DNA from: Acidobacteriota bacterium
GTDB lineage: Bacteria > Acidobacteriota > Holophagae > Holophagales > Holophagaceae
Assembly: GCA_016192145.1 (NCBI GenBank)
Contig: JACPUT010000008.1
Coordinates: 62,001 to 126,000 of the forward strand
DNA: 64,000 nt
Direction of reading: 5' to 3'
How positions within the stretch are numbered: position 1 is the first letter of the stretch; each line of letters begins with the position of its first letter. The position numbers were made by a program, and so were the translations under genes. A model generated the notes under the pieces. The model worked only from the letters and a program-made list of their open reading frames with translations. It did not search any database and was not told where the DNA came from. This document shows positions 30,283 through 41,938 of the stretch, piece by piece.

Positions 30283-31419
30283 TTGGGAGGTCAAGTCATC
30301 CGCAATGCCGCCGGGGTCTACGAGGCCTTGCAAGCGGCGTGCAACCGGAGGGAGCTGTTGATCCTGGCCACGCCCTACCTGCGGGTGGATTCCCACTTCG
30401 TGCGGATGGAGGGCAATGAGGTTCACGTGGCCGCCACCATGACCCGGGATGACGCCATGTACGGCCTCAAGAGCAACGATCTGCACATGCGCTTCCCCCA
30501 CCACACGGCCTTCCTGGAAGGCAAGGTGGAGCTGAAGGGCTTCGGGATCTCGGATGGCCGCCGCACCCTGCGGCTCACCCTGCCGGGCACGCTCCAGGAT
30601 GACGAACTGCGGGGCGCCTACCGCGTGGATCGCGTGGGCAAGGTCACCTGCACCTACAGCACCCGGAAGTACGACCTCCAGACGGCGAGCCTGGTGAACA
30701 TCAGCACCACGGGGGGGCGCCTCCATGCCTTCAAGGACTTCACGGAGGACGAGCTGCGGATGGGAGACAGCCTCTCCGTCACCATCCCCCTCCTGGAGAC
30801 CATCCGCGTCAACAGCCCGGCCAAGGTGAAGCACATCCACATGCGCAGCTTCGGCGTGGAGTTCGAGCCACCCCTCAGCGGCACCCTGCTGGAGAACCTC
30901 TCCCGCTGGATCTTTCAGAAGCGGGAAGAGGATCGGGAGCGCGAATCCAGGCGGGGCGTGGAGACCGCGGCTCCCGGAGATAGCCAGCGTTCCCTTGCCA
31001 ACCAGCTCACCCCCAAACGGGGGATCGTGGTGCTGAGCCCCGACGCCGCGCTCGAGGGCCAGCTTCGGGAGGTCCTCGAAGCCCTTCAGCCCGTGGCCCG
31101 CGTTTCGAGCCCCGGGGGCCAGGGCATCAAGGAGGCCCTGGCCGTGAATCCGGCGCTGGTGATCATCCACGTGGCCAGCCTCAGCCTCGACGAGCGCCGT
31201 CGCTTGAAGACGATGCTGGATGGGCTCGCCATGAAGGTGCCATTCATCCTCCTCGGCACAAGCGTGGATCCCTCCGCCCTCATGGAGTTGGGCAACGAGG
31301 TGAAGGCGGCCTGCGTCTATCAATTCAGCGCTCAGCGGGGAGCCTTTTTCCAGCGGCTGGTGCAGGGCATCCTCCGCCGGCATGGGACGGAGGCGGGTCC
31401 GCCTCCGGAGGAAGGTTGA
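30283..31419 (+). CDS. PilZ protein with a degenerate receiver domain (copy 1)
   Basis: A 378-residue protein, probably from TTG 30283 (GAGGT upstream; no in-frame ATG nearby). Layout: N-terminal YcgR-like beta domain (5-105), PilZ (110-225) with YRVDR as a reduced arginine box and LVNISTTGGRL as the NxSxxG box, a charged linker (225-255), then a receiver-like Rossmann domain (257-370). In the latter the expected phosphoacceptor strand reads ALVIIHVAS, with no Asp, so phosphorylation is unlikely. It is the first of two tandem paralogues; both probably serve cyclic-di-GMP output. Confidence 0.78.
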   Translation: MGGQVIRNAAGVYEALQAACNRRELLILATPYLRVDSHFVRMEGNEVHVAATMTRDDAMYGLKSNDLHMRFPHHTAFLEGKVELKGFGISDGRRTLRLTLPGTLQDDELRGAYRVDRVGKVTCTYSTRKYDLQTASLVNISTTGGRLHAFKDFTEDELRMGDSLSVTIPLLETIRVNSPAKVKHIHMRSFGVEFEPPLSGTLLENLSRWIFQKREEDRERESRRGVETAAPGDSQRSLANQLTPKRGIVVLSPDAALEGQLREVLEALQPVARVSSPGGQGIKEALAVNPALVIIHVASLSLDERRRLKTMLDGLAMKVPFILLGTSVDPSALMELGNEVKAACVYQFSAQRGAFFQRLVQGILRRHGTEAGPPPEEG

Positions 31420-32561
31420 TGGCGCTCTGGCCCTTCGGGGAAGAGATCCCGGCCGCGGCGATCAGGGGCACTGCGCTCCGATCGGTGCTGGCCGAGCTGG
31501 GCGAGCGCAAGGAGTTCGCCCTGCTAGCGACCCCCTACCTGAGCGCGGAGAGCCGCGTATTGGAGGTGGCCCCGGGCACCTTGAAGCTGCTCTCTCCCTT
31601 CCCCAAGGAAACCGCCCAGCGCACCCTCGGCGAACATCCCCTGAGGCTTCGCGTGCCCTGGCAGCTCTCGATGCTGGCGGGCCCCGTGGCCTGGAAGACC
31701 TTCGGCCAGGAGGATCGCCGGCGTTGGATCCAGGTGGAATCTCCCCCGTGGCTGGCTCCCGACGAGCAACGGGCGCAGACCCGGTGCGACCTCCTCGGCC
31801 GCAGCTTCTTCACGCTGACGACGGAGGATCTCCTCCAGTTCAGGGGTTCGGTGGAAAACCTCTCCCTGGGCGGTGCCCTCATCCTGTTGCAGGAGCCGCC
31901 TCCCGCGGGTGTGCTGACGCCGGGCCGGATGGTGGAACTGGGCCTGCGCCTGGAACAGGGGCCGACGCTCAAGGTGCGCGTCCGGCTGCAGCATGGCGAT
32001 TACCCCCGTCTCGGCGTGGCCTTCCAGGCGCCGCCACCGGAATTCCTCGGGGCCTTGGAGATCTGGCTCAAGCCCCGCCTCGCGGAATCCCTGCGCCGCT
32101 GGGAGAACCGGCGGGAATTGCGGGCCCAGGCCGAGGCGGCCGCCAAGGCCAGGGCCATCGCCTCCCAGGCGGAAGGCATCCTCGTCATCGGCTCCCAGCT
32201 CCTGGCGGAAGAGGTAAGCGAGGGGATGGAGGGCCTGGGGCCCATCAAGTTCGGGCCCACGGCCCTCGCCCCCCTCAAGCGCCTCCTGGAGCGCCCTCCG
32301 CAGGCCGTGATCCTGCAAGTGGGCAAAGGGGATCTGGAGGAGCGCTATCGCCTGCGGGGGCTTTGGCAGGCCCTGGGCCTCACCTGCCCCCTGGTGGTGC
32401 TGGGTACGGGGCAGACGGGCTGTGCCCAGGAGGTGGCCCTGGAGTTGCACGCCGACTCGAGCCTGCAGTGGGATCCCGGCAAGGCCCGCTTCCTGGGGCG
32501 CCTGGTACGCGGGCTCGTCCAGCGCGCCAAGGGCGGCGACGAGGACACGAACCCGGGCTGA
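31419..32561 (+). CDS. PilZ protein with a degenerate receiver domain (copy 2)
   Basis: A 380-residue paralogue of 30283-31419, sharing the opening (FALLATPYLSAESRV against LLILATPYLRVDSHF), the PilZ NxSxxG box (VENLSLGGAL) and a C-terminal receiver-like fold without a phosphoacceptor Asp (AVILQVGKGD). The arginine box at the PilZ start is weak, so cyclic-di-GMP binding is less sure than for the single-domain PilZ protein. Its ATG shares bases with the stop of copy 1 (TGATG at 31417-31421), so translation is coupled. The pair has diverged strongly, which argues for an old duplication. Confidence 0.72.
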   Translation: MALWPFGEEIPAAAIRGTALRSVLAELGERKEFALLATPYLSAESRVLEVAPGTLKLLSPFPKETAQRTLGEHPLRLRVPWQLSMLAGPVAWKTFGQEDRRRWIQVESPPWLAPDEQRAQTRCDLLGRSFFTLTTEDLLQFRGSVENLSLGGALILLQEPPPAGVLTPGRMVELGLRLEQGPTLKVRVRLQHGDYPRLGVAFQAPPPEFLGALEIWLKPRLAESLRRWENRRELRAQAEAAAKARAIASQAEGILVIGSQLLAEEVSEGMEGLGPIKFGPTALAPLKRLLERPPQAVILQVGKGDLEERYRLRGLWQALGLTCPLVVLGTGQTGCAQEVALELHADSSLQWDPGKARFLGRLVRGLVQRAKGGDEDTNPG

Positions 32562-32588: not shown

Positions 32589-34334
32589 ATGGCACGCCTC
32601 GCTCCCCCTTCGGATCCCACTCCGGCCTTCCGGGCCGAAGCCGAGGCGCGGCTGGGCCGCGCGGCACGGGCGCTGGAGCTGGAGGTGCTCGCGTCCCGGG
32701 TGGAGGCCGCCCTGGATGGGGAGATCCTGGAGGTGGACCCGGAGCGCCCCCTCGTGGTGAGTGGCCGGGGTGAGCTGCGGGTCGCCTTCGGAACTGGACC
32801 CCAGCAGGCCTTCGCCCGGCTGCAGAGCCAGGGCGCGAAACCCCAGGGGCTGGAGGCCTGGGGAACGCCCGGTTTCCTCGAATCCGCGGAGGCTTTCGCA
32901 TTGGGCGCGGGATTGCCCTTCCACCTGGGCACGGGCCCCCAAACGGCCCAGGGGATCCTGGCGCTGGGCTTCACTTCGGGGGATGCCCCAGCCCTGACCC
33001 CAGGCGCCCTGCTGCTGAGCCTGGAAGGCCCCCCTGGGGTGGAGGGGCTGGCCCTTGGCGCCCAGGCCCGGGGGCTGGATGGGCTTGATCTGGCGCCGGT
33101 GGAAGCCGCGGATCTCCTGGGTTGGGCCCGGAGCCGGAGCTGCGGTCTGGAGGCCGACCTTGGAGCGGCGGGGGCCTGGGGCTTCGCCGTGATCCCTCCG
33201 GGTGAAGCGGCCGCCTTGGGGAATCGCCTCGGCGCTTGGGGGCTCCGGGCGGTCGAAAAGGGGCGGATCACCGGTGGGCCTTCGGTCCTGCTGCGGGGAA
33301 ACGGCGAACTGGAGCTCGGGGTGGATCTGAGTCTAGAAGGCTGGCCGGCCCCCTTCGCGGCGCCCCCGGAGGTAGCCCCCGACGCCGCGGTGAGCCTGCC
33401 CGCCGACCTTGCGGAGGGGGAGGTCGAGCCCACCTTCCGGACCCTCCTCCAGACGGGATTCGAGGCCTCATCCCCCGAGGCCCGGTGGCATGCCCATGGC
33501 GAGGATGGGTCCTTGGCGATCCGGGTGGCGAGCGATGGCGATCGGGTGGCCCTGGACCCCTTCTGGGGGGCGGCTTCCGTGGCGGCCGAGGCGGCCCTGG
33601 GTTTGGCCTGCGTGGGCGCGGACGCGTTGGGCGTGGCCCTGGTGGTGCCTGGCGACGTGTCCACCTCGACCCTCATGGGTCTGCGTCAGGCCTGCGTGAG
33701 CCTGGACCTGCCGGTGATGCGGGTGCAGCGGGAACCGGGCCTGGCGACCCCCGTCGTGGTGGCCCTCGGCTGCGTGGATGCGGGGGCGGCGCCCGTGGAT
33801 GTGGACGCACCCGAAGCGCGGGGGCTCACGACCGCGAGCCCGAAGGTCAGCGGCGTGGCCTATCGGAGGGCTTTCGATGGCCTCTTCCTGCTGGGGGATC
33901 GCCGAGGCGAGTTGGGGGGCAGCCGCATCCTGGCGTTGCGCGGAGGGCGCGAGGCCTGCCCCGAGCCTTGGCTGGATGAGACCTTCCGTCTGCAGGCCTG
34001 CGTGCGCGAAGGGGTGCGGCTCGGCCTCTTCCGAAGCGCCCGGCAGGTGGGCCGTGGGGGCCTGTTGGTGGCCGCCCGGGATGGGGCCCGGGAGGCCCGG
34101 CTGGGCTGCCACCTGCTCCTCGGGGGGGAGGGCCTGCGCTTGGATTCCCTCTGCTTCGGCGAAGCCCCCGGTCGCGTGCTGGTCACCACCAGTGGGGAAG
34201 GGGAGAGCGCGTTACGCACCCTGGCCCGCACCCACCGCGTGCCCTTCGCCAAGGTGGGCATGGTGGGTGGAGCGCGCTTCACGGTGGCGGTGGATGGCGT
34301 GCCGATGGTGGACGTGGAACTGGGGGAGCTCTGA
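32589..34334 (+). CDS. PurL-like protein lacking the first AIR-synthase N domain; probably not a normal FGAM synthase
   Basis: A 581-residue protein related to phosphoribosylformylglycinamidine synthase II. The C-terminal half follows PurL closely: DPFWGAASVAAEAALGLACVGADALG (second AIRS-N), LLGDRRGELGGSRIL, VREGVRLGLFRSARQVGRGGL, and LCFGEAPGRVLVTT near the end (AIRS-C). About 170-270 resembles the first AIRS-C domain (LEADLGAAGAWGF). The normal N-terminal catalytic domain, with ETHNHP and TGVGG motifs, is not there: only about 150 unrelated-looking residues precede. The SGKxS-type segment of the second N domain is also lost. Usual PurL of this class has over 700 residues. A regulatory or structural role, or a new reaction, is more likely than FGAM synthesis. 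Confidence 0.6.
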   Translation: MARLAPPSDPTPAFRAEAEARLGRAARALELEVLASRVEAALDGEILEVDPERPLVVSGRGELRVAFGTGPQQAFARLQSQGAKPQGLEAWGTPGFLESAEAFALGAGLPFHLGTGPQTAQGILALGFTSGDAPALTPGALLLSLEGPPGVEGLALGAQARGLDGLDLAPVEAADLLGWARSRSCGLEADLGAAGAWGFAVIPPGEAAALGNRLGAWGLRAVEKGRITGGPSVLLRGNGELELGVDLSLEGWPAPFAAPPEVAPDAAVSLPADLAEGEVEPTFRTLLQTGFEASSPEARWHAHGEDGSLAIRVASDGDRVALDPFWGAASVAAEAALGLACVGADALGVALVVPGDVSTSTLMGLRQACVSLDLPVMRVQREPGLATPVVVALGCVDAGAAPVDVDAPEARGLTTASPKVSGVAYRRAFDGLFLLGDRRGELGGSRILALRGGREACPEPWLDETFRLQACVREGVRLGLFRSARQVGRGGLLVAARDGAREARLGCHLLLGGEGLRLDSLCFGEAPGRVLVTTSGEGESALRTLARTHRVPFAKVGMVGGARFTVAVDGVPMVDVELGEL

Positions 34335-39056: not shown

Positions 39057-39254
39057 GGCACTGGAATAAAAAGAGGGAACGGTCCCTACCAACGGATAGG
39101 GTGACAGGAAAATTTCTACTGGTCCCAATATTATTTCGTAGGAAACATTCCCGAATTCCACCCCTGGCGGCCAAAAGCGAGAACCTCCAAATCCTTAACC
39201 TCGTAGGTCGAGGATTTACGGTTGAGGTCGCGATCAGGGTGGGCCCGGACTCCC
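39057..39254 (-). promoter_or_regulatory. AT-rich leader between the porin gene and the AraC gene
   Basis: This 198-base gap is the most A+T-rich non-coding stretch on this side of the window. Near the porin stop it holds an interrupted inverted repeat (AAATCCT at about 39189-39195 and AGGATTT at 39211-39217) that could act as a weak terminator. The remainder is a reasonable place for the AraC promoter. No exact -35/-10 pair is claimed. Confidence 0.4.
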
Positions 39255-40496
39255 CTAGAAGGCCACTTGGAAACCGGCCACGATCGTATCCCCACCCTGC
39301 TCCGAGGTCTGCCCGGCGGCGGCCCGGGGGGCCAGGAAATTCTTGGAGCGGCTGATGTAGTTCACCTTGAGGTTGGCCGACTTCACGCTCTCGGGCTTCA
39401 AGGCGAACTGATACCCCACGGAGACCTCCGTATAGCGCGGGGTGTAGTCGGCAGCTCCCACGTGGTACGGGTTGCTGGCGGTATACCAATCATCCCCGGC
39501 GTTGTAGTCCATCACATCCAGCCGGGCCATGAAGGTGTGGTGGCCGAAGGTGTAGGCCCCCGTGAGCACCTGCCCCATGAACTTCTGGTCGAGGTGTTCC
39601 CGGAGGGCCGCCGCGGGCGCCCCGTTCACGAGGGTGGCCGTGGAGCTGATTCCGAACCCGCGCCCCAGGCGCCCCGTCACGAACTCCCAGGAGGCCTGCC
39701 ACGGCGCCATCTGGAAGGCGTAATAGAGGCCCAGGTGGCTCGTGAGGTCCTTATTCGCAACGATCGTGGAAGGGGTGGGGGCTCCGACGGCGCCCGTGAA
39801 CGTGCGGGCAGTGAGGGCGCTGCTGTCCTTGTCATTGAGATCGGTGGTGCCGCGAAGGCCATAGGCCCCGAAGTGGTGCATTTTCGCGGCCGTGAAGTCC
39901 AACCGGACCGCGACATCCTTGGCGGCATTGGAGTCATTCACCTTCGGAGCGCCATTGAAGAGGCCCACCGTGGCCCGTCCCCCGAAGGAGGAGCCATCCC
40001 CCCAACTATAGGAACCGGCCGCGCCGCGCTGGCGGACGTCCCCGAGGGTGCGGCCCATCTGGCTGCGTTCCACGAACAAGAGCTCCGAGGAACTGGTCAT
40101 CCCCTCCAAGGTCTGGAAGGCCTTCATCTGGCCGACCTTGAAGGTGAATCCGCCGCCGGCCTTGTAGGCGAGCACGGCGTCCTGGAGGATGCTGTTGGTG
40201 GTGGAGGGGCTGATGGACGGGTCCATCATGACCTCCCAATCCAGATCGTCCGTGATCTTCCCGCTGGCCTTGAGTTCGGTGCGACGCACCGCGAAGGTGT
40301 TCTCGCGGAACTCGCTCCGGAGGTTGTAGTAGGTCCGCCCCCCGGCTGCCGTGGGCAAGGTGGTGCTGTTGTTCCGGAGGTCCGAGGGGGTGGTGAGATT
40401 CCACCAGACCTGGACGAGGCCGGAGATCTTGACCTGGGCCTGGGCGCTGGTTGCCAGGGTTAGCGCGGCGACCAGGGTGCCGAGAGTGCGCTTCAT
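39255..40496 (-). CDS. Porin-like outer-membrane beta-barrel protein (tandem copy 2)
   Basis: A 413-residue exported protein (signal KRTLGTLVAALTLATSAQAQ from ATG 40496) predicted to form an OprP/OprO-like phosphate-selective-type porin. Alternating strands run throughout (TFAVRRTELKASGKI, FTFKVGQMKAF) and the C-terminus ends in FQVAF, the Phe-terminal barrel assembly signal. It shares most of its sequence with the gene at 40688-41938, including whole blocks such as SPSTTNSILQDA and ELLFVERSQMGRT. The solute is unknown. It follows the terminator of the other copy and has its own leader, so the two can be expressed apart. Confidence 0.85.
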   Translation of the reverse strand: MKRTLGTLVAALTLATSAQAQVKISGLVQVWWNLTTPSDLRNNSTTLPTAAGGRTYYNLRSEFRENTFAVRRTELKASGKITDDLDWEVMMDPSISPSTTNSILQDAVLAYKAGGGFTFKVGQMKAFQTLEGMTSSSELLFVERSQMGRTLGDVRQRGAAGSYSWGDGSSFGGRATVGLFNGAPKVNDSNAAKDVAVRLDFTAAKMHHFGAYGLRGTTDLNDKDSSALTARTFTGAVGAPTPSTIVANKDLTSHLGLYYAFQMAPWQASWEFVTGRLGRGFGISSTATLVNGAPAAALREHLDQKFMGQVLTGAYTFGHHTFMARLDVMDYNAGDDWYTASNPYHVGAADYTPRYTEVSVGYQFALKPESVKSANLKVNYISRSKNFLAPRAAAGQTSEQGGDTIVAGFQVAF

Positions 40497-40620
40497 GATT
40501 CCCTCCGTGGGTCGGCCGGAGCATTCCGGGAGCAGGTCCATGGACCGGACGGGCCGCCCATGGGAATCGGCCAGGTCGGGGGGATTCCTTATTTTCCCCC
40601 GATGGAGAGGGCCCTCGGAG

Positions 40621-40651
40621 AAAGAAAAAGCCGGCCACTTTCGCGGCCGGC
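40621..40651 (-). terminator. Rho-independent terminator of the upstream porin gene
   Basis: GCCGGCC (40630-40636) pairs with GGCCGGC (40645-40651). Reading leftward the stem is followed by TTTTTCTTT (40621-40629), a classical T tract. It lies 37 bases beyond the stop of the 40688-41938 gene. Confidence 0.9.
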
Positions 40652-40687
40652 CTGCTTCAACCCTGTCGTCAGGGAGGACTTGGGAAC

Positions 40688-41938
40688 CTAGAAGGCGATC
40701 TGGAAGGCGGCGACGATGGTATCCCCACCCTGCTCGGAGGTTTCACCCGCGGCGGCGCGGGGGGCCAGGAAGTTCTTCGAACGGCTGATGTAGTTCAACT
40801 TGATGTTGGCGGACTTCAGGCTTTCGGGCTTGAAGGCGTAGAGGTAGCCCACGGAGGTCTCCGTGTACTTGGGCGTGTAGTCGGCGGTGCCCACCTTGTA
40901 GGGGTTGGCGGCGGTGTACCACTTGTCGCCCTGGTTGTAGTTCATGGAGTCGTAGCGGGCCAGCACCGTGTGGTTGCCGAAGGTGTAGGCGCCCGTGAGG
41001 ACGAAGCCCATGAACTTCTGGTCCAGGTGCTCGCGGAGGGCCGCGGTGGCGGCGCCGTTCACCAGGGTGGAGGTGGAGGCGATGCCGTAGCCACGACCGA
41101 GGAGGCCGTTCACGTACTCGGCGGAGAGGTGCCAGTCGGCGGTCTGGAACACGTAGTAGGCGCCGAGGTGGCTCGTCTTGTCCTTGTTGTCCACGATGGC
41201 GGCGGCGGTGGGAGCGTTCACGGCGCCGGTGAAGGTGCGGGCGGTGAGGGCGCTGCTGTCCTTGTCATTCAGGTCGGTGCTGCCCTGCAGGGTGTAGAGG
41301 CCGAACCGGTGATCCTTGGCGACGGTGAAATCGAACCGCGCGACGAAATCCTTGCTGGCGTTGCTGTCGTTCACCTTGGTGACGCCGTTGAAGGCGCCCA
41401 ACACGACGCGCCCGGCGAAATCCTTGGGTTCACCGAAGGAGTAGATCGCCGCGGCACCGCGCTGGCGCACGTCGCCGATGGTGCGGCCCATCTGGCTGCG
41501 CTCGACGAAGAGCAGCTCGGAGGAGCTGTTCAGGCCTTCGTAGGTTTGGAAAGCCTTCATCTGGCCCACCTTGAAGTCCAGGCCCAGGCCGGTCTTGTAG
41601 GTGATGGTGGCGTCCTGCAGGATGCTGTTGGTGGTGGAGGGGCTGATGGAGGGATCGATCATCGCCTCGTACTCGACGCCATCCACGATCTTGCCGGCGA
41701 ACTTCAGCTCCGTGCGGCGGACGGCGAAGGTGTTCTCGCGGAACTCGCTGCGGAGGTTGAAGTAGGTGCGGCCCCCGGCGGTGGTGGGGAGGGTGGTGCT
41801 GTTGTTCCGGAGTTCGGAGGGGGTGGTGAGGTTCCACCACACCTGCACGAGGCCGCTGATCTTGGGGGCCTGGGCGGCGGCGGGCGTGATGCCGGCGGCG
41901 ATGAGGGCCACCAGGGAGAGCATGGAAGTACGCTTCAT
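40688..41938 (-). CDS. Porin-like outer-membrane beta-barrel protein (tandem copy 1)
   Basis: A 416-residue paralogue of 39255-40496 with signal peptide SMLSLVALIAAGITPAAAQA, AGGAGA upstream of ATG 41938 and the same terminal Phe (FQIAF). The copies are collinear without large gaps, pointing to tandem duplication followed by moderate divergence, mainly in strand-connecting loops. Loops determine ion or solute preference in this family, so different substrates are plausible. The 115-base upstream region carries no recognised Pho box or cobalamin riboswitch. Confidence 0.85.
   Translation of the reverse strand: MKRTSMLSLVALIAAGITPAAAQAPKISGLVQVWWNLTTPSELRNNSTTLPTTAGGRTYFNLRSEFRENTFAVRRTELKFAGKIVDGVEYEAMIDPSISPSTTNSILQDATITYKTGLGLDFKVGQMKAFQTYEGLNSSSELLFVERSQMGRTIGDVRQRGAAAIYSFGEPKDFAGRVVLGAFNGVTKVNDSNASKDFVARFDFTVAKDHRFGLYTLQGSTDLNDKDSSALTARTFTGAVNAPTAAAIVDNKDKTSHLGAYYVFQTADWHLSAEYVNGLLGRGYGIASTSTLVNGAATAALREHLDQKFMGFVLTGAYTFGNHTVLARYDSMNYNQGDKWYTAANPYKVGTADYTPKYTETSVGYLYAFKPESLKSANIKLNYISRSKNFLAPRAAAGETSEQGGDTIVAAFQIAF

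What the first reader, a model, noticed from the sequence alone, without database searches (positions are those of the whole stretch)
32589..34334. PurL-like protein without the first AIRS-N catalytic domain
Clear PurL C-terminal motifs coexist with a missing ETHNHP/TGVGG domain and a lost SGKxS segment. It may be a repurposed purine-pathway protein or a subunit that regulates the true enzyme.
Basis: partly seen in the sequence, partly recalled or inferred. Interest (0 to 1): 0.5.

Follow-up and report, generated by a model that had tools for sequence, protein, structure and literature searches.

The report
Catalytically dead PurL left after replacement
A bacterium of the Acidobacteriota swapped its three-part purine-making enzyme for a one-piece version, and the old main subunit has survived at its original place as a shortened protein without its catalytic parts whose sequence still looks selected, though what it now does is unknown.

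Summary
Window 32589-34334 (+) is an intact 581-aa ORF (sPurL) with a recognisable PurL C-terminal half and no detectable first AIRS-N domain; ESHNHP, TGVGG, NYGNPEKPE and SGNVSLYN are missing. By gene order it is the positional orthologue of the ordinary ~765-aa PurL of other Holophagaceae (radical SAM - PilZ - purL - amidase - AraC). Its genome has no PurS or free PurQ and carries a complete one-chain FGAM synthase (TIGR01857, 1672 bits, cut-off 1057). In the family the two systems exclude each other: 0 of 17 genomes with the one-chain enzyme have PurS, and only this one keeps any match to sPurL. Three one-chain relatives whose PilZ-amidase junction I read have no purL there. A codon-model test rejects plain neutral decay after loss of function: a model with about 68% of aligned sites still constrained gains 41 lnL units, against at most 3.0 in 24 neutral simulations; all 8 C-terminal indels keep frame. 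Best reading: a PurL pseudoenzyme left by displacement of PurSQL, its fold still (or until recently) selected. Its present job, perhaps a binding module pairing through the AIRS barrel, is inferred. It is a singleton (1 of 93 class genomes), so recent death cannot be excluded.

The parts
32589..34334 (+). sPurL, 581-aa PurL-derived pseudoenzyme (whole ORF; no evident Shine-Dalgarno before the ATG)
   Evidence: upstream read
32622..32723 (+). N-terminal helices (residues 12-45), in the place of the PurL linker domain
   Evidence: model (pLDDT blocks 79, 80, 64, 50); no Pfam linker match in sPurL, while two relatives have one
32724..33188 (+). residues 46-200: where PurL N1 and most of C1 should be; no detectable similarity, about 107 residues shorter than in relatives
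33189..33494 (+). residues 201-302: end of AIRS-C1 and the linker to the second half
33495..33800 (+). second AIRS-N domain (N2), catalytic/ligand loops deleted in frame (28, 2, 7, 2 and 8 residues)
   Evidence: sub-threshold Pfam match
33879..34280 (+). second AIRS-C domain (C2), residues 431-564; HD of SAHD changed to RQ
   Evidence: Pfam PF02769
28553..30250 (-). radical-SAM-like gene, conserved neighbour
   Evidence: 72-78% in the four longer matches; name from reading the sequence, no family search run
30283..31419 (+). PilZ1: PilZ-like neighbour (no Pfam match itself; similar to PilZ2's relatives)
31416..32561 (+). PilZ2: PilZ-domain protein, stop about 27 bases before sPurL
   Evidence: Pfam PF07238
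34648..36231 (+). amidase, conserved downstream neighbour
   Evidence: Pfam PF01425
38193..39161 (-). AraC-type regulator (name recalled); in G011 purQ and purS lie directly beyond it
39162..39257 (.). place where purQ-purS lie in relatives; no such gene in this genome

Best explanation
sPurL is the genome's original small PurL (FGAM synthase subunit), displaced when the lineage came to rely on a one-chain FGAM synthase of the TIGR01857 kind. PurS and free PurQ were lost; PurL stayed at its old place, lost the catalytic first half and the ligand-binding loops of the second half by in-frame changes, and cannot make FGAM (shown by sequence and by missing partners). Most of its remaining C-terminal sites stayed under purifying selection after that (model-based evidence). 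The most likely present role, inferred, is a non-catalytic one in which the C-terminal AIRS unit acts as a binding or scaffold module, pairing with itself through the N2 barrel as PurM-type proteins do (recalled); the partner is unknown.
For: Same gene order as in relatives with full PurL. Complete one-chain PurL in the genome, 1672 bits against cut-off 1057. No PurS; the best PurQ match is the fused C-terminus. Of 77 family genomes 17 carry the one-chain enzyme at 57-100% identity per piece (my count); 0 of these 17 has PurS and only G000 has any match to sPurL. In G065, G070 and G064 PilZ is followed by amidase with no PurL match between. sPurL is 34-41% identical to nine relatives, while 25 relatives are 74-99% identical to L017 and 75-85% to L033, and neighbours are not fast (radical SAM 67-78%, AraC 74-85%). 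Selection: site mixture over neutral second phase +41.4 lnL; simulated neutral gain at most 3.0 in 24 runs and 38-67 in 12 constrained runs; 8 indels in 201-580, all in frame; an open frame survived in only 0-10.5% of neutral simulations of 430 codons; among 45 positions (residues 303-581) conserved in at least 95% of 81 PurLs, nonpolar 20 kept/8 lost, polar 6 kept/11 lost, P 0.029. The C-terminal half is modelled confidently and aligns to PurLs (T. maritima 2hs3 Z 26.8, rmsd 2.5, 284 residues).
Against: The short form is a singleton: residues 1-302 give no short relative among 93 class genomes, so conservation between species cannot be shown. The branch is saturated, so point values of omega mean little. 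Selection may have ended recently. GC at codon positions 1 and 2 is raised (0.80 and 0.56, against 0.64-0.74 and 0.42-0.50 in six neighbours), a sign of relaxed constraint. No clear ribosome-binding site. No partner, expression or activity data.
Confidence: 0.66

Rival explanations
1. A dying gene: smPurL became useless after displacement and is decaying; the open frame is a passing stage and the protein does nothing.
For: The function is covered by the one-chain enzyme; partners are gone; 0 of 16 other one-chain genomes has a match to sPurL; raised GC1/GC2; no evident ribosome site.
Against: Plain neutral second phase rejected; eight in-frame indels; no stop over 581 codons.
Confidence: 0.25
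2. sPurL regulates or stabilises the purine pathway, for example by forming mixed dimers with the one-chain PurL or PurM through AIRS barrels.
For: Retained AIRS C-terminal unit; PurM and one-chain PurL present in the genome.
Against: The one-chain enzyme belongs to a different clade and is present in 16 relatives without any match to sPurL; no linkage to purine genes in the part of the window examined.
Confidence: 0.15
3. sPurL has become an enzyme with another substrate, using a rebuilt site.
For: Continuing constraint; FGE, GGS and GG motifs of C2 kept.
Against: Conserved polar residues of N2/C2 are mostly lost (6 of 17 kept) and no replacement motif was seen.
Confidence: 0.05
4. Artefact of assembly or sequencing (frameshifts or a chimera) in a normal PurL.
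For: None found.
Against: 331-kb contig with conserved gene order, genome 97.97% complete and 0.07% contaminated; no convincing PurL similarity in other frames; changes are spread over the whole gene.
Confidence: 0.02

Closest known systems
Small PurL of the PurSQL FGAM synthase (TIGR01736 / NF002290)
   Same: Positional orthologue; C-terminal half N2-C2 recognisable and predicted to fold the same way
   Different: First half unrecognisable, catalytic and auxiliary-site loops deleted, partners PurS and PurQ absent, scores far below family cut-offs
Replacement of smPurL/PurS/PurQ by a clostridial-type one-chain PurL in Methanocorpusculum labreanum, and the decayed PurQ-like fragment of Methanoculleus marisnigri (PMC3261824, passages read)
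   Same: Same kind of swap between one-chain and three-part enzyme; a leftover fragment without catalytic residues
   Different: There the leftover is a PurQ piece that its authors suspect is decaying; here the leftover is PurL with a sequence signal of continuing selection
Gammaherpesvirus vGAT pseudoenzymes (PMC10820379, passages read)
   Same: PurL/PFAS homologues without key catalytic residues that have a non-catalytic role through binding
   Different: Viral, homologous to host PFAS and known to recruit it; no such partner known here; no sequence comparison made

Membership tests
Small PurL (FGAM synthase subunit II, TIGR01736/NF002290) | Score above the curated cut-off | tested here: not met
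   56 of 525.75 and 72 of 648 bits
Small PurL (FGAM synthase subunit II, TIGR01736/NF002290) | First AIRS-N domain with catalytic ESHNHP and TGVGG | tested here: not met
   Absent
Small PurL (FGAM synthase subunit II, TIGR01736/NF002290) | Ligand loops NYGNPEKPE and SGNVSLYN of the second half | tested here: not met
   Fall in 7- and 8-residue in-frame deletions
Small PurL (FGAM synthase subunit II, TIGR01736/NF002290) | PurS and PurQ partners in the genome | tested here: not met
   No PurS; PurQ only as the fused domain
Small PurL (FGAM synthase subunit II, TIGR01736/NF002290) | Common descent with smPurL (gene order, C-terminal homology) | tested here: met
AIR synthase related superfamily (AIRS_C, PF02769) | Pfam gathering score | tested here: met
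   32.4 bits, cut-off 23.1
AIR synthase related superfamily, N-terminal domain (PF00586) | Pfam gathering score | tested here: not met
   13.4 bits, cut-off 24
Neutral pseudogene | Substitution pattern and indels as expected without selection | tested here: not met
   a recent end of selection is not excluded
Pseudoenzyme | Stable protein with a non-catalytic function | not testable with these tools
   Needs expression and phenotype

The most novel reading that the evidence does not exclude
After its enzyme was replaced, a bacterium turned its own PurL into a non-catalytic binding protein: a bacterial counterpart, arisen independently, of the herpesvirus PurL-like pseudoenzymes.
Probability: 0.35. 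Interest if true: 0.55.

Novelty: new variant of a known kind. Interest (0 to 1): 0.38.

Why it matters
If sPurL works, it shows a core metabolic enzyme being turned into a non-catalytic protein after its replacement, with intact orthologues and one-chain-only relatives in the same family to compare. If it is only a relic, it still documents an exchange of the one-chain and three-part FGAM synthases inside one bacterial family: in three GTDB genera (g1, g7, g9) both systems occur, though some of those cases rest on incomplete or possibly contaminated genomes (G054 76% complete, G069 8% contamination).

Tried and rejected
Frameshift or other-frame explanation of the N-terminal half: no convincing hit. 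Eroded N1 domain: my own threading by eye looked tempting, but local and global profile scores are no better than shuffles, so it is not claimed. The first structure prediction, with 10 sequences, failed (pLDDT 34.6); the second, with 82, is used only for the C-terminal half. A single-omega branch test rejects omega = 1 (about 35 lnL units) but is saturated, hence the two-phase models with simulated controls (there the functional branch lengths, kappa and omega were held at their true values, while they were fitted). In one search, where the functional phase was left unbounded, the plain neutral second phase fitted only 23 lnL units worse than the site mixture, by stretching the functional branch to 6.6 substitutions per codon against about 1 in relatives. 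Codon tests used four relatives (L033, L043, L017, L012) of the 26 full PurLs then at hand, and the 378 codons aligned in all five rows; aligning by similarity can favour conserved sites.

The first genome-contig scan found nothing; the second returned full PurLs and showed the family to be Holophagaceae/Geothrix relatives. Its patterns included LDPFWGAA, which sPurL has; the ORFs opened from the 80 loci kept (of 293 confirmed) are of full PurL length or cut or split, with no clear second short form. Of these 80, 71 went into the second structure alignment; those without a recognisable SEHC-like motif were dropped. Paper searches: (PurL with PurS and FGAR-AT; pseudoenzyme with the synthase name; Holophagaceae with purine; pseudoenzyme with PurL, 0 papers). 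That bacterial PurL pseudoenzymes were not seen in print is claimed only for these searches.

Full report
What is there. The ORF at 32589-34334 (+) encodes 581 residues. Pfam sees one AIRS_C domain (431-564) above threshold and a weak second AIRS-N (306-376); nothing in the first 300 residues. Curated PurL models match mainly the C-terminal half and score far below cut-off. The best solved relative by sequence is Thermus thermophilus PurL, 3viu.

The genome's real FGAM synthase. The window lies in G000, 3.80 Mb, 97.97% complete, 0.07% contaminated. On another contig it has a 1256-aa one-chain PurL (L039:4709-8479) that matches TIGR01857 end to end with 1672 bits, with its own ETHNHP motif and a glutaminase domain. 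PurS is absent; the best PurQ match is the C-terminal domain of the one-chain enzyme. Other AIRS-family members are PurM and one 430-codon open frame that I did not name. So the purine step is covered without sPurL.

Family picture. Of 77 held genomes of the family (Holophagaceae/Geothrix by the record titles), 55 match sPurL, G000 included, 56 have PurS, and 17 have the one-chain enzyme by my count of rows at 57-100% identity per piece. None of these 17 has PurS; of the 16 other than G000 none has a match to sPurL. G000 is the only genome with both a smPurL derivative and the one-chain enzyme. Three genomes (G016, G025, G067; 72-83% complete) show neither system, and G038 has smPurL without a PurS match. 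The other held genome of the same genus, G054 (76% complete), has smPurL, PurS and a PurQ-like match and no one-chain enzyme. In g7 (G063 against G060-G062) and g9 (G069, 8% contamination, against others) both systems also occur.

Positional orthology. Window genes radical SAM, PilZ1, sPurL, amidase and AraC have the same order as in G011 and G034, with partial cover in G058, G053 and G054. In G011 purQ and purS lie just beyond AraC; in the window the DNA beyond it reads porin-like by eye. In G065, G070 and G064, one-chain genomes, PilZ is followed by the amidase with no PurL match between. In G071 and G051 the one-chain gene itself lies beside the PilZ genes, in convergent orientation. The one-chain gene of G000 is 69-74% identical to three others, much as they are to one another, so transfer and old coexistence of both systems are both possible.

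How far it has gone. sPurL is 34-41% identical to nine relatives in the aligned parts; 25 relatives are 74-99% identical to L017 and 75-85% to L033. Neighbours in the window are not fast: radical SAM 67-78%, AraC 74-85% to relatives. Losses in the C-terminal half: eight indels, all in frame, of 5, 3 (insertion), 28, 2, 7, 2, 8 and 2 residues. Of 45 positions in residues 303-581 conserved in at least 95% of 81 PurLs, 26 are kept; nonpolar ones 20 of 28, polar ones 6 of 17 (P 0.029). At residues 46-200 no similarity to PurL is detectable.

Is it a pseudogene? Codon positions still differ strongly (GC 0.80, 0.56, 0.84), though GC1 and GC2 are higher than in six neighbours. Neutral evolution to 50% identity over 430 codons leaves no stop in 0-10.5% of runs, depending on start and base composition. 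With the functional part of the branch capped at about the longest relative branch (1.7 substitutions per codon), a plain neutral second phase has lnL -4723.4, a uniform reduced omega -4714.8, and a mixture with 68% constrained sites -4682.0. Simulated neutral data with uneven constraint in the functional phase gain at most 3.0 (24 runs), simulated constrained data 38 to 67 (12 runs). So selection on a majority of the aligned C-terminal sites lasted beyond the loss of catalysis under these models. This does not show that it lasts today.

Structure. The usable model (82 sequences, mean pLDDT 68.9) is good from about residue 268 on, apart from short stretches, and poor at 82-196. VIA-align matches 3viu over 511 residues (Z 34.5, rmsd 5.5) and, for the C-terminal half, T. 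maritima PurL 2hs3 over 284 residues (Z 26.8, rmsd 2.5). The placing of the N-terminal half may be led by the alignment given to the predictor.

How it may work. In PurL the two AIRS halves form a pseudo-dimer, domain 1 with the active site, domain 2 with an ADP site of unknown function (PMC3815217, passages read). sPurL has kept domain 2 as a fold without most of its conserved polar residues. The simplest use of such a unit is a binding module that pairs through the N2 barrel; this is inference, and the partner is open. Catalysis of the FGAM step by sPurL alone is very unlikely.

Known parallels. Replacement of smPurL/S/Q by a one-chain PurL of clostridial kind, and a decaying PurQ leftover, are described in archaea (PMC3261824, passages read). 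PurL-like viral pseudoenzymes exist in gammaherpesviruses (PMC10820379, passages read). A bacterial PurL pseudoenzyme did not appear in the searches.

Noticed in passing
window 39258-41500 (minus strand): Two adjacent stretches read as near-copies of each other (porin-like by eye), tandem paralogues next to the emptied purQS site; no family search run.
   Followed up: no
window 30283-32561: Two overlapping PilZ-type genes; related PilZ genes occur in one to three copies beside the radical SAM gene in the relatives read.
   Followed up: partly
L145 (G071) and L146 (G051): In these one-chain genomes the one-chain purL lies beside the PilZ genes, convergent to them, hinting at replacement near the old locus.
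   Followed up: partly
G015:C21 (likely the same genome as L072): smPurL is split into two open frames (562 and 396 codons) in a Geothrix-like genome; assembly error or a broken gene was not decided.
   Followed up: no
G063 against G060-G062; G069 against other g9 genomes: Three-part and one-chain FGAM synthases occur within the same GTDB genus, as in G000/G054.
   Followed up: partly
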